NCBI GenBank assembly: GCA_014360905.1 | Contig: JACIWW010000004.1 | Span: 1-64,000, forward strand | DNA: 64,000 nt | Direction of reading: 5' to 3' | Source of the DNA: Chloroflexota bacterium | Lineage (GTDB): Bacteria > Chloroflexota > Anaerolineae > UBA2200 | Shown here: positions 54,279 through 64,000 of the stretch, in pieces | How the letters are laid out: each line of letters starts with the position of its first letter | Position numbering within the stretch: position 1 is the first letter of the stretch | Translations under genes and position numbers: made by a program | The notes under the pieces: generated by a model | Databases searched by the model: none | What the model was told of the DNA's origin: nothing | Seen by the model: only the letters and a program-made list of their open reading frames with translations

Positions 54279-56963
54279 TTACCATCTAGCCCCCTCACCC
54301 TGTAGCTTGACAATAGCATAGCCTGCCCTGACCGCAATCTGTGGGATGGCACGCACCAGAGCGCGGTCCTTCTCCTTTTCTTCCTCAGAGAGGGGTTCTT
54401 CGCCAATCGCTGCTGCCACGTCGGGCTCAAGCTGTGCACGCTCTGCAGGGGAGAGGCGGTGCCAAGGGAGCATGGCAGGATTAGTTTTCTCTACATCATC
54501 GCGCTTAGTGCCATAGCGCCAACCTGTGACGATCTTGGCGCGCAGCCAGCGCTCATGCTCTATCTCCGCCAATCTCTCCAGGTCTGCCTCCGAGAAGGCA
54601 AACGTCGCTATGCTACCGCGTACTGGGATCATAACACAACCGATGAAAGCCAGCTTGCGCATAATGTCCAGCACATTGTCACGGTTCTGCTGCTTGAGTT
54701 GCACAGACAACTGTTCATACGGTATGGACGCTGCATCAGGCACATCTGGCTTGCCTTTTAGGCTTTGCGTATAGACCTCATGGACCGCTGCAGCCAGTTT
54801 CTCCAGTAGTTCACCTGTCAGTTCAGGCTGCTGCACAAGCGCCAGAAATTCCAATCCGTTCACATGTAGGTTGAGCTGCGCCTCGGAAGGTAGGCAGGAG
54901 CGCTCGAAACGGCTTCTGCCCGCCAACATGCTCATGGCGATAATGGATTCCATGGAACGCACACCGTGTTTGTAGCTGCTGACGTGCAGAAAAGCGCGTA
55001 GAACGCCAGGATCTATGTTTAATCTCCCCTTGCCATCCGGTTCTGTAAACAGATAACCGGCGTTCCGTTCAAAAAGGTTACGCAGGATAATCGCCCGGCG
55101 GATCAGGAAGTATGGATCACCAGCGGGGTATTTGAGGTCCAGCGGGTTAGGCCCCATGATGTTCACGTACCCTTTCAAGCGGCTCAAGAAGTCTGGGCCC
55201 TTAGCATCCCTCGCATTTATCGCAATTCGGGCAAAGTCTTCCATACTGGCAGATGTGCCTCCGGCGAAAACAAAGATAGCCTGGCCAATGGGGTGGGTGA
55301 CCTGCCCCTCCTGGAAAGAGCCATCCTGCATTGGCGAGAGGAAATAACGCAGCCAGCCAAGCACCTGCCCGTCTAACTGACTGTCGAACTCGTCCCAGAA
55401 TACCAACGGCATCTTGCCTGAAAGTACCAAGTCCCTGACCTGGTGCAAAGCACTTATCAGATCCGCGGGCGTCCGGAACTGGGATAGGTTAAAAGTGCGT
55501 ATCTCGATGGCTTCCGGGTCATCTGGCCGGATGGACTTGGCCACCTGTTCCACGCCAAACGATTTGCCTGAGCCAGGCGGGCCAAAAACAGCAATGGATA
55601 TGGGGCGTTTCTGTGTACGACTGCAATATTCTGCGAGAACGGCGCGAATGCTGCGATAACTCTCGATCTCACGCCGATCTAGCGTCAGTAGTTTGCCAAA
55701 CTGCCCTATTGGCACTCCTTGCAAAGCAGATTCGACACCCTCTTCTACTACTTTACGCGCCACCTCGTCCAGGTTTTCCGGGTAACGATCCTGTAAAATG
55801 GTCCAGAATGGTGATAACGACTTAACGCCATATCCATGCTTTTCCACCAGGAAGGAGATGGGGTTTGGGACCCTGATAGACGCTAGGGGTGGTTTCCCCT
55901 CTTCATCCGTGAGCTTGTTCGCCACTATGTCTATAGGGAATGCCAGCCTGCATGGATCCTCAGCAGTATTTGGGCCGAGATAGCCGACTTGGTGTAAAAG
56001 TCGCATCCCCGCCACGCCGTTTTGGATGGCTTGTGCCAGATTGGGCTCAGCCGGATTGTGCAGAATCTGCCAGGCGATACCCGCAGTTAGGCAGGTGGTA
56101 TAACCAATGACTCGCCCGGGATACTGAACGTTCCAACCGCCTTCGGTAAACCTGGGGTCAAAGAACAGCGTGCATTCGACTTCGCCACTTTCCAGATGTG
56201 AGAGCAGCAACGCTCCTGCCGTGTCGAGGGAAATGACCACGTAAGCACAATCCGACAGGCTACTAACATGTGGGTTATTAGTCAGCTCCCAGAATAGATC
56301 CTGAGCTGTGCGTTCCCAGGACAATTCGCGGCTAATCTGCACTTGCGTCAGGCGCAGATCATCAATGGTCATCACCATAATCAAACGCTGAGCGAAGGTA
56401 TCGTGCACGTGCTCCCACAGTGGGCCGCGTGCCACAGGACGAGCCATCTTGACCAAAACCCACCCCCGGAAGTTTTCGTGGGACAAAGCACGCGGCCATA
56501 GTTCAGGCCAATGACGAAAACCCAGGTCAGCATCGTCGAGCACAACCAAAATGGGATCAGCCCGGTCATCGCGCACTTTCTGCCATAATGCTGGCGCTGC
56601 CATAGGGCTGGGATCCAGCCCCAAAGGATCTTTTACACGCCAGGCCATATCATGGCCTTTTCCGCCCTTGAACTGATCCCATAGGGCATAGGAGTGATGG
56701 AAGCGTTCATCGCCGGGATGCACAGGATCCCGTGGGGCATCCATCTGGTGGACGATATAACCCAATGGCTCTGCAATCACACTAATAAGGTCAGCAAGCA
56801 TCGCCGCGCCACCGCGATGCCAGCAGGCCTTGGTGCGGTCGCCAGCCCACCATGCGTGCAAAGTTGTATCATTCCTGGCAATGCGAAAGCGCGCCAGATT
56901 CCAATCCATCGTTACATCTCCCGTAACGATAACCTCTCCTGGCTTACCTTTTGTTTTGCTCAC
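54279..56963 (-). CDS. PfkB-like / AAA+ ATPase / RyR-domain protein
   Basis: 894 residues. Residues 10-300 look like a ribokinase/PfkB-type domain (VIVTGDVTMDWNLAR, a GGAA motif at 51-54, ISRELSWERTAQDLFWEL, FFDP, and a C-terminal GYTTCLTAGIA), although the catalytic GAGD motif is not clear. Residues about 440-640 are an AAA+ ATPase: Walker A GPPGSGKS at 461-468, Walker B VFWDEFDS with Glu525. The C-terminus is a RyR domain (LAEIEHERWLRAKIVTGWRY, then LPWHRLSPAE and KDRALVRAIP). RyR domains are predicted nucleotide-ligand sensors. It is the last gene of the TIR/RyR cluster. The short gap 54098-54278 holds nothing recognisable. Confidence 0.8.
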   Translation of the reverse strand: MSKTKGKPGEVIVTGDVTMDWNLARFRIARNDTTLHAWWAGDRTKACWHRGGAAMLADLISVIAEPLGYIVHQMDAPRDPVHPGDERFHHSYALWDQFKGGKGHDMAWRVKDPLGLDPSPMAAPALWQKVRDDRADPILVVLDDADLGFRHWPELWPRALSHENFRGWVLVKMARPVARGPLWEHVHDTFAQRLIMVMTIDDLRLTQVQISRELSWERTAQDLFWELTNNPHVSSLSDCAYVVISLDTAGALLLSHLESGEVECTLFFDPRFTEGGWNVQYPGRVIGYTTCLTAGIAWQILHNPAEPNLAQAIQNGVAGMRLLHQVGYLGPNTAEDPCRLAFPIDIVANKLTDEEGKPPLASIRVPNPISFLVEKHGYGVKSLSPFWTILQDRYPENLDEVARKVVEEGVESALQGVPIGQFGKLLTLDRREIESYRSIRAVLAEYCSRTQKRPISIAVFGPPGSGKSFGVEQVAKSIRPDDPEAIEIRTFNLSQFRTPADLISALHQVRDLVLSGKMPLVFWDEFDSQLDGQVLGWLRYFLSPMQDGSFQEGQVTHPIGQAIFVFAGGTSASMEDFARIAINARDAKGPDFLSRLKGYVNIMGPNPLDLKYPAGDPYFLIRRAIILRNLFERNAGYLFTEPDGKGRLNIDPGVLRAFLHVSSYKHGVRSMESIIAMSMLAGRSRFERSCLPSEAQLNLHVNGLEFLALVQQPELTGELLEKLAAAVHEVYTQSLKGKPDVPDAASIPYEQLSVQLKQQNRDNVLDIMRKLAFIGCVMIPVRGSIATFAFSEADLERLAEIEHERWLRAKIVTGWRYGTKRDDVEKTNPAMLPWHRLSPAERAQLEPDVAAAIGEEPLSEEEKEKDRALVRAIPQIAVRAGYAIVKLQGEGARW

Positions 56964-57047
56964 GATTCCTCCATTTATCTTGCGAATGCTCTTGCAACGC
57001 TATAGGATTTGCCCACATGGTTCTCCCTGAATTGATTACCCATCAGA

Positions 57048-57848
57048 TCACTCATACACCCCTGCCCCGAGCACACTTACACCTTCCATATCCAGCAAAG
57101 TGTCCCGTCGGCAGATCTCTCCACGAACGAGCACCCACAGGGTATGCCGCTTGTCCGCAATGTCCACGCCAGCAGGTAAAGCAGCTTTGATCTGCTGGAT
57201 AAGTGGGGAGCGGGTAGCCGCCAGGCACGCTGCACCGGTGCCCAGGCTATGCGGCCCGGCCAGGACCATGGCGAGACGTCCCGGATAGTCGGGATGCGGC
57301 CCGCGGACGATAATCCCGTGATCCATAACGTGGATAAGTGCTCCTTCCGTACCCAGATACTCCGTCCTACCTTCAACTATCTCCGTTTGGCCATTCCTTG
57401 TTCGATAGAGAGCAGTCAGATAGTCCCCCTCCTCCTTCTCGCCGGGAGTTGCTCCGAGGGTCCAATTGGGTTCGCGACCCTTTTGTAGGCGTTGCAGCAT
57501 CTCTCGAACGGGTGGGTTGCTCTTCGGAGAGCCAATGAGATAGAGATTCAAGGGTCGGCTTAGCAAGTCTGGAGGGCTATACTGCCCTGATACCAGCTCC
57601 ACACCTCTGCCCTCGCCCATAATGCACCCAAAAGCAGAGATGAGACCCAGAACTCCCAAGTTGTCACCAAATGTTCGTTGGTCATAGGCTTGAGCGCGAA
57701 TGCGGCTATCTTTGCCAGGGTATCTAGGGCTTGCGACAATGTAGGCTGGCGTGGGTATGTCCGCTTCCAACATGTCCCGCAGCAGGGCAATCTGCGAGTT
57801 CACCCGCGAACGCAGATGATCTGCTAAGCGCTTGTCAAAGATCTCCAT
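57048..57848 (-). CDS. Unrecognised alpha/beta domain protein of the TIR/RyR cluster
   Basis: 266 residues. No family is named with confidence. The chain has a conserved-looking core: LNLYLIGSPKSNPPVREMLQ, then ALYRTRNGQ, the segment GIIVRGPHPDYPGRLAMVLA, GPHSLGTGAACLAAT, and a final VLVRGEICRRDTL. The alternating strand-loop patterns suggest a Rossmann-like fold binding a phosphate-bearing ligand. It overlaps the preceding deoxyribosyltransferase-like gene by 25 bp, so the two are translationally coupled and probably work together. Confidence 0.6.
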   Translation of the reverse strand: MEIFDKRLADHLRSRVNSQIALLRDMLEADIPTPAYIVASPRYPGKDSRIRAQAYDQRTFGDNLGVLGLISAFGCIMGEGRGVELVSGQYSPPDLLSRPLNLYLIGSPKSNPPVREMLQRLQKGREPNWTLGATPGEKEEGDYLTALYRTRNGQTEIVEGRTEYLGTEGALIHVMDHGIIVRGPHPDYPGRLAMVLAGPHSLGTGAACLAATRSPLIQQIKAALPAGVDIADKRHTLWVLVRGEICRRDTLLDMEGVSVLGAGVYE

Positions 57849-58243
57849 TGCTTCCCGGCTGCCACCATAGGAGATGACTTCCCTTCCTTCAGATCGGTGG
57901 GCACCTCGACCCCTTCCTCGACGAGCAGCAACAACGGTTTCTGCATACCCACTGCATAGCCTACTTCATAAAACACATTAGCGCTAGGGGTGCTAATTTC
58001 GGCAATTACCAGTTCTGCCCTTTCAATCAGCAAATGAATCTTGGCCAGCAAATCATGGCCTGCGCCATGCACATCGTCGGCGCGAATCGCCGTAAGGCCC
58101 ACCGCCTGATGCACCACCTCGCGGATATGCACGAAAAAATCCCACCTGGACTTGTAGGGCATCACCACGAAAACATAGGGCTTGCCCTGGGTAAGCTCTT
58201 CAACGATATGCCCAAGAGCATACGATGATTCTTCTCTACGCAT
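57824..58243 (-). CDS. Nucleoside 2-deoxyribosyltransferase/TIR-like protein
   Basis: 139 residues with AGGAGGG 7 nt before the ATG. The fold pattern is YVFVVMPYKSRWDFFVHIRE, then LIERAELVIAEISTPSANV and FYEVGYAVGMQKPLLLL. This matches the nucleoside deoxyribosyltransferase/TIR-like superfamily in which the Glu of FYEVGYA is catalytic. Members cleave or sense nucleotides such as NAD in bacterial immunity. No membrane segment. It is coupled to the downstream unknown gene. Confidence 0.75.
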   Translation of the reverse strand: MRREESSYALGHIVEELTQGKPYVFVVMPYKSRWDFFVHIREVVHQAVGLTAIRADDVHGAGHDLLAKIHLLIERAELVIAEISTPSANVFYEVGYAVGMQKPLLLLVEEGVEVPTDLKEGKSSPMVAAGKQWRSLTSA

Positions 58244-58284
58244 AATAACTTCCCTCCTTTAGAGCGCCTTACCGCATAACCCGG

Positions 58285-61185
58285 CTATGGAGTCGGAGCG
58301 GACGGCCTGCAAAGGTCCGCTAGATTTGGGCATGCCGGCCGACATGGTTCGTCCCCCAGGAATTGCTGCCATTCCTTTAGGGTGAGGTTGCGATTGGCAA
58401 CGCGACAGGCACGGGCTTGCCATGAATCCAGACTCACATCCCAGAGTACGATGGTGCCATCTAGGCTGCCAGACACCAAGGTGCGGCCATCCGGGCTGAA
58501 AACTACACTGTCTACAGCAGACCTGTGGCCAATAAGCGGCCTACCTATGACGTGGCCGCTTTTCACATCCCATAGGATAATAGAGTTGTCCTCCGTGGGC
58601 GGGGCTACCTGGCCGCTGCCCGATGCCAATACTTGACCATCTGGACTGAAGGCCACACTATGCACCCCTACGCTATGGCCCTTGAGAGGCGAGAAAATAG
58701 GTTGACCGGTCGTGGTATTCCACAAAATGACAGTAGAATCTCCTCCGCCTGATGCTAAAATATAGCCATCCGGGCTGAAAGCAACGTTGTTGACCCAAAA
58801 ACTATGCCCGCGCAATGGTTGGCCAAGTGGCATCCGTGTGGCAACATCCCAAAGGATGATCGTTCTGTCCATGCCACCGGAGGCCAGCATCTTCCCATCT
58901 GAGCTGAATGCCACGCCTTGTACCTCTGCAGTGTGACCGGTTAATGGCTTACCTAGCGCTTGGTGCGTAGCGATATCCCAAAGGATGATGGTTTTGTCCG
59001 CGCTGCAGGAGGCTAACATCTGCCCATCCGGGCTGAAGGAAACGCCCATGACCGATCGTGTATGGCCTGTCAAAGGTTCGCCAATGGGTTGCTGGATCGC
59101 AATATCCCAAAGCATGACAGTGTTGTCCTCGCTTCCAGATGCCAACATCTGGCCATCTGGACTGAAGGCAAGGCTGGTTACGAAGGACTTGTGTCCCTTC
59201 AAAGGCTGGCCAACGGCTTGGCCTGTCACAGGATTCCACAAGATGATGGCATAATCCTTCCCCCCTGAGGCAAATGCTTTGCCATCAGGGCTAAAAGCGA
59301 GGCCCCCGGTATAACCAGCCTGCCTGATGACAAGCCGGGCAAGTGGTTGGGACAAAATCTGCTTCGTGTCCCATAACATAATCAAGTTCCCGCTGCCTGC
59401 GGCCAGTGTTGCTCCATCAGAACTGAAAGCTATAGTCGGCACTCCTTCGGCATGCCCAGTGACCAGCGCACCCAACGCCTGATGCGTATGCGCATCCCAC
59501 AATGTTACCGTGCCATGTCCGCTACCTGAGGCCAACGTTTCTCCGCTGGCATTGAAAGCTAGGCTGAACACCCCATCGGTGTAACCAATGAGAGGGATCT
59601 CACTTATTGCATCCCCAGATGAGACATCCCATATCATGATGGCGTCATCAGCATCCCCACCTGACAACAGCGTCTGCCCGTCTGGACTGAAGGCTATGCA
59701 AGTCACATAATGGCTGTGCCCCTCCAGGCGTGGCATCAGTAGCTTGCAGGAGGCAACGTCCCAAAGAACAATGGTGCGATAGGCGCCTGCTGCCAATATG
59801 CGTCCATCCGGGCTGAAAGCGATTTCCTGCACCATTCCCCAGTGAGGCCCAAGCGGCTGACCAAGCGCTTCTCCCGTTGCTACGTCCCATAGAATCACAG
59901 TCTGGTCATCGCTGCCAGACGCCAACGTCTTCCCATCTGGACTGAAGGCGACACTGAGCACATGGTGTTTATGTCCCTGAAGGGGAGCAAGGAGAGGCAA
60001 GCCAGTCCCTACATTCCACAGGATAATGGAACCGTCGGAACTGCCTGACGCCAGCATTTGTCCATCCGGACTGAAGGCCACGCTGTTAACTGCGTCAGTG
60101 TGCCCAGTGAGGCATCGTCCGCTGGATTCAGGATGCGCTATGTCCCAGAGCATAACGCTGCCATCCGCACTGCCTGAGGCCAGCATATTTCCTTGCGGAC
60201 TAAAGGCCACGCTGAACACGTAAGAGGTGTGGCCATGCAGAAAAGCAATAAGCCCCGGGCTGTGCTCTAATGCATCAAGCAAGCTGGCTCTAGCTTCTAC
60301 CGTATCGGTAATGCGGCTGGCCTCAACAGCCAACAGCAGCGCTAGGTCAAGCTGGTCAGAAAGGTAAGTTCGCGCCTGCGCTGCCAACTGGCGAGATAAA
60401 GCGATGCGACGCTGTTGTTCTGCATTATCCTTCTGCTGGATTGCCTCAGCTTGCGCCGTAGCGCGTACTCTGGCTTCCTCAACAGCAATAGCCTTCGCCT
60501 CCAGTGCCTCGTTGCGCTGGCTCCAGGCAACCAGTGCCAGAACGGTTGACACTACCAAGCCCAATGACACCGCAGCAAGCGTGGCCCTCTGCCGCTTTGT
60601 TGCTGTCTTGCGGCTGGCAAGGATGTACTCCACATGCAGCGGAGTTGGCGTGGGTGCTTTTGTCGCGCCTTGGCTCAACCATTCCTCTGCCTCCTGGAGA
60701 TCTCTGCCGCGCAGCGCAAAGCTATTGTCCTGCCCTTTACTGTCCCACTCTTTAGCGCGCACGAGGAGCCGCGTATGCGCGCGCACCCAGTCGAAATCCG
60801 CTTGAATCGCTCGCACTAGCTTGTCGAAAGCCTTCTGGAAATCGTCCTGTTCGCGGAAAAATATCCAATTGAGCGAAGCTATTTCAGGTGGCAGAATTTT
60901 GGGGTCTATATCATGCAACAGCACGGGTACCAATCGTTTGTGGTTCCTGAGGCCGTGCTCGATCTCTCTGCGGCAGACCTCCGAATGGACCGACGTCTGG
61001 CTGACAATGAATACCAGTATATCAGCCCCTTCAATGGCCCGATACACCTCTACCAGCCAATCTGCACTGGGGGGAATGTCCTCCCAATCAACCCATATGT
61101 CAAGACCCCTGGCTTTCAAGGCTTCGTAGAGCACACGCGCAAAAGCAATATCTTTTCGTGAATAAGAGATAAAGACGTCTGACAT
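58285..61185 (-). CDS. TIR-TM-WD40 protein
   Basis: 966 residues. TIR domain at 1-140 (VFISYSRKDIAFARVLYEAL, then the Cys-Arg-Arg-Glu motif in EVCRREIEHGL where Glu is the expected catalytic residue). A membrane helix follows (AVSLGLVVSTVLALVAW, about 205-225), then a coiled coil rich in Ala/Glu/Gln and a short helical link. Fourteen WD40 repeats from about residue 318 (e.g. GHTDAVNSVAFSPDGQMLAS) are enough for two seven-bladed propellers. The C-terminal tail (LTLKEWQQFLGDEPCRPACP) is typical of bacterial TIR/NACHT-WD40 proteins. The propeller would sense, and the TIR would signal or cleave NAD. Confidence 0.92.
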   Translation of the reverse strand: MSDVFISYSRKDIAFARVLYEALKARGLDIWVDWEDIPPSADWLVEVYRAIEGADILVFIVSQTSVHSEVCRREIEHGLRNHKRLVPVLLHDIDPKILPPEIASLNWIFFREQDDFQKAFDKLVRAIQADFDWVRAHTRLLVRAKEWDSKGQDNSFALRGRDLQEAEEWLSQGATKAPTPTPLHVEYILASRKTATKRQRATLAAVSLGLVVSTVLALVAWSQRNEALEAKAIAVEEARVRATAQAEAIQQKDNAEQQRRIALSRQLAAQARTYLSDQLDLALLLAVEASRITDTVEARASLLDALEHSPGLIAFLHGHTSYVFSVAFSPQGNMLASGSADGSVMLWDIAHPESSGRCLTGHTDAVNSVAFSPDGQMLASGSSDGSIILWNVGTGLPLLAPLQGHKHHVLSVAFSPDGKTLASGSDDQTVILWDVATGEALGQPLGPHWGMVQEIAFSPDGRILAAGAYRTIVLWDVASCKLLMPRLEGHSHYVTCIAFSPDGQTLLSGGDADDAIMIWDVSSGDAISEIPLIGYTDGVFSLAFNASGETLASGSGHGTVTLWDAHTHQALGALVTGHAEGVPTIAFSSDGATLAAGSGNLIMLWDTKQILSQPLARLVIRQAGYTGGLAFSPDGKAFASGGKDYAIILWNPVTGQAVGQPLKGHKSFVTSLAFSPDGQMLASGSEDNTVMLWDIAIQQPIGEPLTGHTRSVMGVSFSPDGQMLASCSADKTIILWDIATHQALGKPLTGHTAEVQGVAFSSDGKMLASGGMDRTIILWDVATRMPLGQPLRGHSFWVNNVAFSPDGYILASGGGDSTVILWNTTTGQPIFSPLKGHSVGVHSVAFSPDGQVLASGSGQVAPPTEDNSIILWDVKSGHVIGRPLIGHRSAVDSVVFSPDGRTLVSGSLDGTIVLWDVSLDSWQARACRVANRNLTLKEWQQFLGDEPCRPACPNLADLCRPSAPTP

Positions 61186-61257
61186 TTGGTTGCCTCCCAG
61201 GCTTTGTTCTTAATGTCCTCTCCAATAAGGAGGGCTTAGCAACCTTGCGCAGCCACT

Positions 61258-62542
61258 TCACTGTTCCAGCTTCTGGTGCAATTGCTGGTAGTATTCCTCA
61301 TCGGCAGGGGAAATGTAGATACCGGCTCGCTTCATGCCGGAAAGGATTTCATACGCTCGTCGCCACCACTCAAGGGCTGCGGGGTCACCAGAATGTTCCA
61401 GGACATCCGCGATCCAGCAACAAGCTACCCACAGGTCACGCTGCCATTCGGCGTTGGAGGGATCGGCTGCAGCCAGCCGTTCGGTTATGGTGAGGCTGGC
61501 ACGGTACTCAGTCAGCGCACCTGCCAAGTCCCCCTGCGTCTGCAACACGCGTCCTATGTCCTGGTGGCTGACCGCCAGGTCCTCTTGCCACAGGTCATTG
61601 GAAGGGTCAGCCGTCGCCAAACGCCCCAAAATTGTCAAACTGGCGCGATACTCCGTCAGCGCACCCACCAGGTCCCCTTGCACTTGCAACGTCCCACCTA
61701 CCTTGCTGTGGCTGACTGCGAGTTCACGCTGCCAAAGAGCGTTGCTCGGATCCTCTGCCGTCAGACGTTCCATAATCACTAGGCTGGCTCGATATTCTAC
61801 TAGGATGTCCAGCCGCCCCGTCGGCTCCAGTAGTTCCCGTAGGTCATACAACAGGAACTCCAGCACCGACTCCGCCTCTAGACGCGACCGCCTTCTTCCG
61901 CTGCTCGTTGGCATACCACGCCAGTCCGGCAAACACCAGTACCAGAACCAAAGCCACCGCCACTGTCATCTGCAGGCGACGAATCTGGCGCTGCGCATCG
62001 CGCTGCTTCAGTACATCAAAACTCACCCCCAGCATCCCCGCCAGCAACTTGAGCTTGGCATTGCTTTTACCATCGCCTTATGGACGGGCATCGGCTGCGA
62101 TGGGCTCGATCTGCTTCAGTGCCGCTGGAAAGCACTCCTGTGCATTGCCACTGTGAGGTTCGCCATCCACGACCAACGCCAGGACGCGGTCGCTGCGTCC
62201 TAACTCGCCAAATACCTCGATCTCGCGATTCACCCACTTAGACTGTGCCGCATGCGGCGAGCAAACAATGATCAGATAGCGCGAGGCGCGCAAGGCGTTC
62301 CCGATTTCGCGCCCCAGGTCGGCAGTCGCCGCGAGTTCCGCGCGGTCGAGGAAAACGGGGTGGAAACGCTTTGGAGCAGGCTCCCTCGCCGGCGTTTCGT
62401 GACCGACCAACTGCGCTGGTATACCATAGGTCTCAATGGCGCGGTGCAACCACCTGGCCCACCTTTGGTCCTTGCTGCTGTAACTGATGAATGCCCAGCA
62501 TCGGTATTCCTGAGCAGCGTGTGTTGTTTCAGACCTGGACAA
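61258..62542 (-). pseudogene. TIR-TM-tetratricopeptide-like protein, interrupted
   Basis: Three open pieces form one protein. TIR piece (62542-62078; TTG start): WAFISYSSKDQRWARWLHRA and FLDRAELAATADL. An in-frame TAA follows (DARP-stop-GDGKSNAKLKLL). The next piece (62077-61844) has a membrane helix TVAVALVLVLVFAGLAWYA and then changes frame at about 61888 (KKAVAS into EAESVLEFL). The third piece (to 61258) has three repeats of about 50 residues ending VGALTEYRASLTI. One nonsense and one frameshift mutation, or read errors, disrupt it. Confidence 0.7.
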
Positions 62543-62575
62543 TTCCTTTTCAGTAAAAAGCCTTCCATCGGGCCT

Positions 62576-64000
62576 CTAGTTCAGACGGTACACTTGTAGC
62601 CCAGCCCGTGCGAGGACGCGCGGCAACTCGCAAACCATATTCCGATCCTTTTCTTTCTCGTATTCAGGCAGCTCCTCCCAGGGAACCAGGATTGGGCTGG
62701 TCTTTCGCTTCATGTTTTTGGGACCTAGAGCATAGGTCCAGCCCGCACGTAGCCGCTCTTCGACAAAGCGCTGATGCTCCATCTGTGCCATCCGCTCCAC
62801 TTCTTCCGCTGTAAACTGGAACCGTTCCGCATCCCAATCGGTTAATGGTGCTATACCATAACCGACCGCCTTTAACTTCACCATAATGTGCTCCGCCTGG
62901 CACCGGTTCGATTCCCTGAGCTCCTCTGGCAATTCCTCCCAAGGGACCAAGGAAGGGTTAGTTTCAGGAATCTCACCTAATTCTTGCTGATGCCGCACAT
63001 AGCTCTCGTGAATGGCGCGAGCCAGTATTTCATGCGTACCTCCGAGGATCAGCTCTGGGCTGCAGGTCCGATCCAACAACCCAAACGCATGCAGTTTGTC
63101 GCAGTCATCCCCTTGGGAACCGCGCAGAAGCATTGCCAACCCACTCTCATGTGCCATGCGCACCACAATGGGAATTCGTCGCCCTCTGATGCACTGCAGC
63201 AGCGCCAACCCCGCTCTCAGGCCCAGAGAATCATTATCCAAGCACACATATATTGCCGTTACATCGCAGCGCCCCTCAGAATCGAACAAAAATGGGGCTT
63301 GCTCGAACTCAGGCCAGCGGATATCCATTTGCAGAGCAACTAACTCGCAGGCATTCCTCAATTTCGGATAACGTAGGTATAGCAACTCCGCTTTACGCTT
63401 TGCTTCCCAATCCACGATACTCATCCGCAAAGGGCCATTGCTTGGTGCATATTTGCTCCACCAATCTCTGGCCATATGAACCACTAGGCTCTCCCCCATA
63501 CGCCCCAGCCCAACGACCAGCACATGGGGCTGATGCATCAATAAGCCGTCCATATTAGTGAAGGGTGGGTGTTCCTGCAAAAGAAGGCGTGCTCCGCGGT
63601 CGAAGATATTGAATAACTCCAGCCGATACGAAGGAAATGGTGCGATTTCTTGCTCGCGGAGCAAGTGGTACAGTCGCGGATCCACGATATGAACAAAGCA
63701 CTCTACTGGACGTCCTTGTCGCTGTGTAGCCAGCTCTTGCACGCGAACAGCAACTTCGGCATTTGTGCTGTCATCTCCACAGACAGAGAGCACATACTTC
63801 GCTTTAGGCACTCCTGCCCACCGTAGTAACTCGCGCTCCCTGGCGTTCCCTAGGACCACGATTGCGTCTTCTTCCCGGCATAGTGCGATGAAGTCGTTGC
63901 CCTCGTCCTGCTCGATTACTACTACATGTTCTCCTTGCTGCAGAAATCCTCGGGTCAGGAGCAAACCCATGCGTCCCAACCCGCAAATCACCACATGATC
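62576..64000 (-). CDS. TrkA-N / tandem RyR-domain protein (5' end outside the window)
   Basis: At least 474 residues; the frame is open at the right edge (DHVVICGLGRMGLL). It has two Rossmann NAD-binding domains of TrkA-N type: HVVICGLGRMG with VVVIEQDEGND, and HVLVVGLGRMGES with SIVDWE. Two RyR domains follow. The first is around YVRHQQELGEIPETNPSLVP, the second around MEHQRFVEERLRAGWTYALG. This architecture was reported in surveys of bacterial conflict systems, sometimes after an ion-channel segment, which could lie outside this window. It leads the minus-strand cluster; the TIR gene follows 33 bp later. Confidence 0.85.
   Translation of the reverse strand, partial: DHVVICGLGRMGLLLTRGFLQQGEHVVVIEQDEGNDFIALCREEDAIVVLGNARERELLRWAGVPKAKYVLSVCGDDSTNAEVAVRVQELATQRQGRPVECFVHIVDPRLYHLLREQEIAPFPSYRLELFNIFDRGARLLLQEHPPFTNMDGLLMHQPHVLVVGLGRMGESLVVHMARDWWSKYAPSNGPLRMSIVDWEAKRKAELLYLRYPKLRNACELVALQMDIRWPEFEQAPFLFDSEGRCDVTAIYVCLDNDSLGLRAGLALLQCIRGRRIPIVVRMAHESGLAMLLRGSQGDDCDKLHAFGLLDRTCSPELILGGTHEILARAIHESYVRHQQELGEIPETNPSLVPWEELPEELRESNRCQAEHIMVKLKAVGYGIAPLTDWDAERFQFTAEEVERMAQMEHQRFVEERLRAGWTYALGPKNMKRKTSPILVPWEELPEYEKEKDRNMVCELPRVLARAGLQVYRLN

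What the first reader, a model, noticed from the sequence alone, without database searches (positions are those of the whole stretch)
54279..64000. TIR / RyR / TrkA-N / PfkB-like cluster: candidate immunity or nucleotide-stress system
Six consecutive minus-strand genes with gaps of 25-85 bp or overlaps combine two TIR proteins, a deoxyribosyltransferase-like protein, two RyR-domain proteins, WD40 propellers, TPR-like repeats, AAA+ and NAD-binding Rossmann domains. RyR, TIR and deoxyribosyltransferase-like domains have been tied to nucleotide-based conflict systems by comparative genomics. This specific six-gene set with a PfkB-AAA-RyR protein and the unknown domain (57048-57848) is not one I can match to a named, tested defence system. 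A plausible scheme: RyR/TrkA-N sense a modified nucleotide or NAD state, the AAA+ protein transmits, and TIR/deoxyribosyltransferase enzymes destroy NAD or nucleosides.
Basis: partly seen in the sequence, partly recalled or inferred. Interest (0 to 1): 0.88.

Follow-up and report, generated by a model that had tools for sequence, protein, structure and literature searches.

The report
TIR and RyR-channel immune signalling locus
A Chloroflexota-type bacterium carries, beside its dnaA gene, immune-type TIR enzymes next to a potassium-channel-like membrane protein that ends in the same small nucleotide-binding domain found in animal ryanodine receptors; the pairing recurs in unrelated bacteria and suggests an untested defence in which a TIR-made ADP-ribose signal opens a membrane channel.

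Summary
The cluster is real, but three details change. (1) The "unknown" and "deoxyribosyltransferase" ORFs are one gene broken by a 1-nt deletion; the TIR and TPR ORFs are another broken gene. (2) The TrkA-N/RyR ORF runs past the window: 588 aa, 2TM/pore helix-RCK-RCK-RyR, closest in fold to the ADP/NAD-binding K+ channel GsuK and to RyR3 Repeat12. (3) The last gene is PfkB-fold pseudokinase-AAA+-RyR. All three TIR_2 matches of the 2.83-Mb genome lie in this locus. In two phylum surveys, 8 of 9 other assessable RCK-RyR loci have a TIR gene within 6 kb (about 0.06 expected), often as a bare two-gene pair; 22 of 31 PfkB-AAA-RyR loci also carry a SLOG-like protein. A 2026 preprint shows that phage RyR domains bind or cleave TIR-made 2'/3'cADPR; the pocket residues are largely conserved here. 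Best reading: a Thoeris-like system in which TIR makes an ADP-ribose-type signal, RyR senses it and an RCK channel-like protein disturbs the membrane; the AAA protein regulates. Function is untested. Against generality: PfkB-AAA-RyR stands alone, without TIR, in about 20 Chlorobia-like genomes. No PADLOC, NCBIfam or Pfam family covers the core proteins as units.

The parts
54279..56963 (-). PfkB-fold pseudokinase - AAA+ ATPase - tandem RyR protein, 894 aa (GTG start)
   Evidence: Pfam RyR 7e-15; AlphaFold model pLDDT 85 matches HldA/ribokinase and AAA proteins; Walker A GPPGSGKS, Walker B FWDEFD, Arg SRLKG conserved; the PfkB GAGD aspartate is absent in all 25 relatives; dN/dS 0.08
57048..58243 (-).
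   Evidence: Single 400-aa ORF in L003, 95% identity in both halves; 1-nt deletion near 57887; Nuc_deoxyrib_tr 5e-5 and PADLOC TIR Effector 6e-9; unknown half in 1 of 400 phylum genomes
58285..61185 (-). TIR-TM-WD40 protein, 966 aa
   Evidence: WD40 2e-146; own TIR HMM 2e-55 and a hydrophobic segment at 201-219; TIR_2 5e-30; dN/dS 0.12
61258..62542 (-). Broken TIR-TM-TPR gene (TIR half 62078-62542, TPR half 61258-61932), interrupted by an in-frame TAA and a frameshift
   Evidence: Reading through the TAA continues into a typical TIR-juxtamembrane and TM stretch; TIR_2 1e-16, TPR_12 6e-7; TIR half absent from L003
62576..64000 (-). Channel-like 2TM/pore-helix - RCK - RCK - RyR protein; 588 aa, continues to contig position 64342 outside the window
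   Evidence: TrkA_N 2e-17, RyR 6e-17; full ORF; model of the L003 orthologue matches GsuK (E 1e-12), TrkA and RyR3 Repeat12; RyR vs animal RyR E about 1e-36; dN/dS 0.12

Best explanation
A Thoeris-like nucleotide-signalling system with a channel-type effector. Step 1 (inferred): a TIR protein with a sensor tail (here TIR-TM-WD40) detects an insult such as phage infection and turns NAD+ into an ADP-ribose-type signal. Step 2 (inferred; the ligand class of the RyR fold is shown in phages by others): the RyR domain of the neighbouring 2TM-RCK-RCK-RyR protein binds the signal. Step 3 (inferred): the RCK gating ring opens or closes the membrane pore, disturbing ion balance and stopping the infected cell. 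The PfkB-AAA-RyR protein, with SLOG where present, is a second ADPR-sensing ATPase that regulates the response (amplifies it, restrains it, or buffers the signal). In this genome the SLOG slot is taken by a DRHyd/TIR-like protein that is now frameshifted. Shown here: architecture, recurrence, TIR adjacency, pocket conservation across the family, purifying selection. Not shown: the signal, ion flux, phage resistance.
For: TIR adjacency: RCK-RyR proteins have a TIR gene within 6 kb in 8 of 9 assessable loci outside the window (expected 0.06, P about 2e-17), in genomes with only 1-3 TIR genes; in G082, G320 and G620 the only TIR_2 match of the genome lies next to the channel gene. Bare TIR+channel pairs without AAA: L057, L058, L117, L125, L134, L138. 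In the window genome all three TIR_2 matches are in the locus. RyR ligand class: phage RyR-domain proteins cleave or sponge 2'/3'cADPR using H75, W78, H100, D117 (PMC13232231). Equivalents: PfkB-AAA-RyR 25/25 H, 25/25 W, 21/25 H, 25/25 D; channel proteins 23/23 H, 20/23 W, 14/23 H, 17/23 D. Channel fold: TM1, pore helix, TM2, RCK1, RCK2, best match GsuK, solved with ADP or NAD bound. Effector theme: some loci carry SLOG-SLATT fusions or 2TM-RCK proteins (L007, L010) instead. SLOG-like partner or fusion in 22 of 31 PfkB-AAA loci. Patchy spread over at least eight phyla with supported cross-phylum joins and on plasmids.
Against: PfkB-AAA-RyR stands alone beside housekeeping genes in about 20 Chlorobia-like genomes with no TIR nearby, four of them without any TIR_2 match, so it has a TIR-independent existence. 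Two archaeal RCK-RyR loci lack TIR, and G257 has none nearby. No TVGYG-type selectivity filter in any of 23 channel-like proteins, so pore function is unproven. In the window copies the H100 equivalent is N (AAA protein) or S (channel), and W78 is F in the channel. Two accessory TIR genes of the window locus are broken or truncated. Neighbourhoods show few known defence genes; no phage relatives. SLOG assignment is weak.
Confidence: 0.5

Rival explanations
1. Ion or NAD homeostasis module: the RCK-RyR protein is a K+ or Ca2+ channel set by ADP/NAD/ADPR levels, PfkB-AAA-RyR is a metabolic regulator, and TIR proteins give stress signalling rather than phage defence.
For: GsuK, the nearest fold, is an RCK K+ channel solved with ADP and NAD bound. 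PfkB-AAA-RyR is kept in Chlorobia-like genomes without TIR; in three of them (L116, L118, L121) it lies 28-66 bp from a P-type cation ATPase gene on the same strand. The window locus sits beside dnaA and is syntenic in the sister genome.
Against: Patchy distribution (RyR in 10 of 400 Chloroflexota genomes), TIR adjacency, SLATT and SIR2 partners and plasmid carriage are more typical of conflict systems.
Confidence: 0.22
2. The RyR modules are negative regulators: they bind or hydrolyse the TIR signal, as phage RyDEP does, to restrain TIR toxicity, and the TIR proteins themselves are the toxic NADase effectors.
For: The H75/D117 dyad needed for RyDEP hydrolysis (PMC13232231) is invariant in all 25 PfkB-AAA-RyR proteins; the TIR proteins carry large sensor tails; several loci have multiple TIR genes.
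Against: D117 is N in 6 of 23 channel-type proteins; fusion of RyR to an RCK/2TM protein is hard to explain for a mere signal sink; six of eight phage RyR homologues tested bound the signal while none of them cleaved it as RyDEP does.
Confidence: 0.15
3. Coincidental neighbours: separate TIR, WD40 and RyR genes gathered in a hypervariable region, with no shared function.
For: Gene content varies strongly between loci; the window copies of two genes are decayed; Chlorobia-like loci lack the partners.
Against: TIR adjacency P about 2e-17; PfkB-AAA-RyR with RCK-RyR in 3 of 4 Chloroflexota genomes against 6 of 400 carrying the latter, P 8e-6; SLOG fused to PfkB-AAA-RyR in L012, L015, L016, L017, L026, L028.
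Confidence: 0.06

Closest known systems
Thoeris anti-phage systems (types I, II, IV and VI as cited in PMC12847820 and PMC13232231)
   Same: A TIR enzyme encoded beside a nucleotide-sensing effector; SLOG or TM effectors occur in known types.
   Different: No SIR2-SLOG, TM-macro or caspase-like effector here; the candidate effector is a 2TM-RCK-RCK-RyR protein. The core proteins match no PADLOC or NCBIfam Thoeris model; only the TIR domain does, weakly.
Phage RyDEP / RyR-domain anti-Thoeris proteins (PMC13232231)
   Same: Same RyR (PF02026) family and largely the same conserved ligand residues.
   Different: Those are phage-encoded RyR proteins that remove the signal; here RyR is fused to an RCK channel-like protein or an AAA+ protein in host chromosomes beside TIR genes.
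GsuK / MthK RCK K+ channels and TrkA
   Same: 2TM with pore helix followed by tandem RCK domains; GsuK solved with ADP or NAD bound.
   Different: No TVGYG filter in 23 relatives; an added C-terminal RyR domain; TIR neighbourhood.
Animal ryanodine receptors (Repeat12)
   Same: RyR domain homology at E about 1e-36; a cation channel with a cytosolic Repeat12 that binds adenine nucleotides.
   Different: Unrelated channel core; here the RyR unit hangs on RCK domains or an AAA+ ATPase.
SLOG/SLATT/TIR nucleotide-centric conflict systems (Aravind group; the 2015 paper was not available to me)
   Same: TIR, SLOG-like, DRHyd and SLATT modules shuffled in the same neighbourhoods.
   Different: I know of no tested system with PfkB-AAA-RyR or RCK-RyR. 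From memory that work discussed RyR domains, so priority for the prediction may lie there; not checked.

Membership tests
Thoeris | TIR-domain protein with catalytic Glu beside the effector gene | tested here: met
   TIR_2 matches in the window; a Glu at the canonical C/W-x-x-E place by sequence reading only (CRREI, WVNREI); TIR next to RCK-RyR across phyla
Thoeris | Known ThsA-type effector (SIR2-SLOG, TM-macro, caspase-like) | tested here: not met
   PADLOC and NCBIfam scans find no ThsA or other Thoeris effector among the locus proteins
Thoeris | TIR makes a cyclic ADPR-type or His-ADPR signal that activates the effector | not testable with these tools
   Needs biochemistry
Thoeris | Protects against phage | not testable with these tools
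   Needs phage challenge
RyR-domain (PF02026) family | Profile match over the curated cut-off | tested here: met
   55.4 and 62.1 bits against 27.4
RyR-domain (PF02026) family | RyDEP ligand residues H75, W78, H100, D117 | tested here: inconclusive
   Conserved across most relatives, but in the window H100 is N (AAA protein) and S (channel), and W78 is F in the channel
K+ channel with RCK gating ring | 2TM + pore helix + tandem RCK | tested here: met
   Model of the L003 orthologue; RCK HMM matches
K+ channel with RCK gating ring | TVGYG-like selectivity filter | tested here: not met
   None in 23 relatives; ion selectivity, if any, unknown
PfkB carbohydrate/nucleoside kinase | Fold | tested here: met
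   Foldseek to HldA, ribokinases and archaeal nucleoside kinase, E about 1e-8 to 1e-6
PfkB carbohydrate/nucleoside kinase | Catalytic Asp of GAGD | tested here: not met
   The Asp position holds S or T (rarely C or V) in all 25 relatives: pseudokinase
SLOG | SLOG-superfamily profile match for the partner protein | tested here: inconclusive
   Best weak matches are SLOG/DprA models (YAcAr 0.013, DNA_processg_A 0.015, YpsA 0.06; ShosA 0.003), all below cut-off; fusion to SLATT in L004 and L024 supports it. Absent in the window genome

The most novel reading that the evidence does not exclude
A TIR-made cyclic ADP-ribose signal directly gates a prokaryotic RyR-domain ion channel as an abortive-infection effector: a bacterial counterpart of cADPR-ryanodine receptor signalling, with PfkB-AAA-RyR-SLOG as a second signal-processing arm.
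Probability: 0.35. Interest if true: 0.9.

Novelty: new variant of a known kind. Interest (0 to 1): 0.72.

Why it matters
If true, TIR immune signalling would have a further output, ion-channel gating through a RyR domain, and the disputed link between cADPR and animal ryanodine receptors would gain a prokaryotic precedent that is easy to test. It would also offer a reason why phages carry RyR-domain proteins: they would copy the host's own signal receptor. The bare TIR+RCK-RyR pairs are only two genes and can be tested at once.

Tried and rejected
Six-gene cassette as the unit: rejected, because two pairs of the ORFs are halves of broken genes and the gene set differs in other genomes. Unknown domain (57048-57848): no Pfam, NCBIfam, PDB or plasmid match and found only in this genome among 400; left unexplained. 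PADLOC/NCBIfam membership: core proteins do not match. Phage-borne origin: no phage relatives. Defence-island test on 92 neighbouring proteins: only a few hits, including two Argonaute/SIR2-type ones, with no control set, so not counted as support. PfkB-AAA-RyR as an obligate TIR partner: rejected by the Chlorobia-like genomes. Literature: eLife 2020 and the Viruses 2022 survey do not mention RyR; NAR 2015 and J Bacteriol 2020 are not held. The dN/dS value for the unknown domain used a wrong frame and is ignored.
Full report
What is there. The window is the first 64 kb of contig C4 (156,668 bases) of a 2.83-Mb genome in 49 contigs. Its nearest relative in the genome collection is a Chloroflexota MAG (L003), which has the same locus between dnaA and an MFS transporter gene. 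Reading past the window end, the minus-strand order is: dnaA (65368-66771), a truncated TIR gene (64418-64801, 127 aa; 513 aa in L003), the TrkA-N/RyR gene (62576-64342, 588 aa), a broken TIR-TM-TPR gene (61258-62542), TIR-TM-WD40 (58285-61185), a broken DRHyd/TIR-like plus unknown-domain gene (57048-58243) and PfkB-AAA-RyR (54279-56963).

The deoxyribosyltransferase-like and unknown ORFs are one 400-aa ORF in L003, with 95% identity in both halves; the window has a 1-nt deletion between them. Reading through the TAA at the end of the second TIR ORF gives a typical TIR-juxtamembrane and TM stretch, and the TPR frame then follows after a shift. Whether this is real decay or assembly error cannot be told here. 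The intact genes are under purifying selection against L003: dN/dS is 0.08 for PfkB-AAA-RyR, 0.12 for TIR-WD40, 0.12 for the channel-like gene and 0.05 for the DRHyd half, beside 0.05 for dnaA (simple Nei-Gojobori-type counts with synonymous sites near saturation, so rough).

The channel-like protein. The L003 orthologue was modelled (pLDDT 82): TM helix within 2-47, pore-like helix 54-63, TM helix within 78-114, two RCK domains, then RyR. The best solved matches are GsuK, an RCK K+ channel solved with ADP and NAD bound (E about 1e-12), TrkA, and human RyR3 Repeat12 with nucleotides bound. By sequence profile its RyR part matches animal RyR at E about 1e-36. None of 23 relatives has a TVGYG-type filter; a conserved loop of the form DxxYxxLQLFxLESG stands in its place. 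Pore function and ion are therefore open.

The PfkB-AAA-RyR protein. The model (pLDDT 85) shows a PfkB-family N-terminus (HldA, ribokinase, nucleoside kinase), an AAA+ domain with intact Walker A and B and a conserved SRLKG arginine, and a RyR unit. The PfkB catalytic Asp of GAGD is missing in all 25 relatives, so this part is probably a binding domain and not a kinase (inference).

Recurrence. With PfkB-AAA-RyR as bait, 34 loci came from Chloroflexota, Acidobacteriota, Actinomycetota, Armatimonadota, Bacteroidota, Verrucomicrobiota, Myxococcota, Cloacimonadota and others; the weakest of these share only the RyR domain. In the 31 loci with the PfkB-AAA core (phylum-survey loci included), a SLOG-like protein is adjacent or fused in 22, an RCK-RyR channel-like gene lies within 6.5 kb in 11, a 2TM-RCK protein in 2, and a TIR gene in 13. 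SLOG is fused to the C-terminus of PfkB-AAA-RyR in L012, L015, L016, L017, L026 and L028, and SLOG-SLATT fusions follow it in L004 and L024. The SLOG label rests on weak but consistent profile matches and the SLATT fusions. The window genome has no such protein; its slot holds the DRHyd/TIR-like gene, a fold that Kaur et al. 2020 call related to SLOG and TIR. The tree mixes phyla with supported joins; long branches limit what it can prove. Relatives also lie on plasmids of Methylobacterium, beside a SIR2 gene, and Streptomyces.

The tightest link is TIR with RCK-RyR. RyR is rare: 10 of 400 Chloroflexota genomes and 27 of 385 genomes of the phylum of G400. Among assessable RCK-RyR loci of these surveys, without the window, 8 of 9 have a TIR gene within 6 kb; about 0.06 would be expected from the TIR counts of those genomes (P about 2e-17; TIR counts). 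In G082, G320 and G620 the single TIR_2 match of the genome lies next to the channel gene. L057, L058, L117, L125, L134 and L138 are bare TIR + RCK-RyR pairs without PfkB-AAA-RyR. The probability assumes random gene placement and independence of genomes, so it should be read as order of magnitude only.

Why RyR points to ADP-ribose signals. A 2026 preprint (PMC13232231) shows that phage RyR-domain proteins cleave or sequester 2'cADPR and 3'cADPR made by Thoeris TIR enzymes, through H75, W78, H100 and D117. The equivalents are 25/25, 25/25, 21/25 and 25/25 in PfkB-AAA-RyR and 23/23, 20/23, 14/23 and 17/23 in the channel-like proteins. In the window itself H100 is replaced (N in the AAA protein, S in the channel) and W78 is F in the channel. 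These are the weakest points for this particular copy.

Mechanism. Most likely: TIR with sensor tail, to ADPR-type signal, to RyR, to RCK gating of a membrane pore; PfkB-AAA-RyR with SLOG as a second sensing arm. TIR adjacency, architecture and pocket conservation are shown; signal identity, gating and defence are inferred. An ion- or NAD-homeostasis role for that protein is a serious rival.

Novelty. No Pfam, PADLOC (2023) or NCBIfam (June 2026) model covers the core proteins as units, and the held literature has only the phage RyR paper and one incidental mention for Thoeris with RyR. From memory, the Aravind group's 2015 comparative-genomics paper dealt with RyR domains in such networks; it was not available, so priority for the prediction is uncertain. 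I file this as a new variant of a known kind: Thoeris-like logic with an untested RyR-channel output. It is not a Thoeris member by the effector test.

Noticed in passing
L118:4810-10082 (also L116, L121): In Chlorobia-like genomes a solitary PfkB-AAA-RyR gene is followed by a P-type cation ATPase gene 28-66 bp downstream on the same strand; other such genomes have queD-like and radC-like genes there.
   Followed up: partly
L084:7018-10741 (Arcobacter plasmid p121_Kiel_2759): A split form: an RCK (NAD-binding) protein, a separate small RyR protein and a DUF4062 protein in a row, near type I restriction genes. L035 (Lachnospiraceae) also pairs RyR with DUF4062.
   Followed up: partly
L064:4308-14685 (Methylobacterium plasmid pA): PfkB-AAA-RyR next to a 2,082-aa SIR2 family protein between transposase genes: a different NADase in the TIR position.
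   Followed up: no
window 58285-61185; L003:1988-3529, L003:12788-14989; L030:15140-16945; L117:8926-10158: The TIR proteins of these loci tend to be TIR - long or TM linker - variable beta-propeller or carbohydrate-binding-like tail (WD40, GH43_C2/DUF1349, Fib_succ_major), which could mean sensing at or outside the membrane.
   Followed up: no
window 57048-57848 / L003:9115-9912: A ~266-aa domain fused to the DRHyd/TIR-like domain, with no detectable relative in Pfam, NCBIfam, PDB, PLSDB plasmids or 399 other Chloroflexota genomes.
   Followed up: partly
L031:8795-12783 and L032:8678-10480 (Methanomicrobia): Archaeal RCK-RyR proteins without TIR; in L031 the gene overlaps a TPR protein gene.
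   Followed up: no
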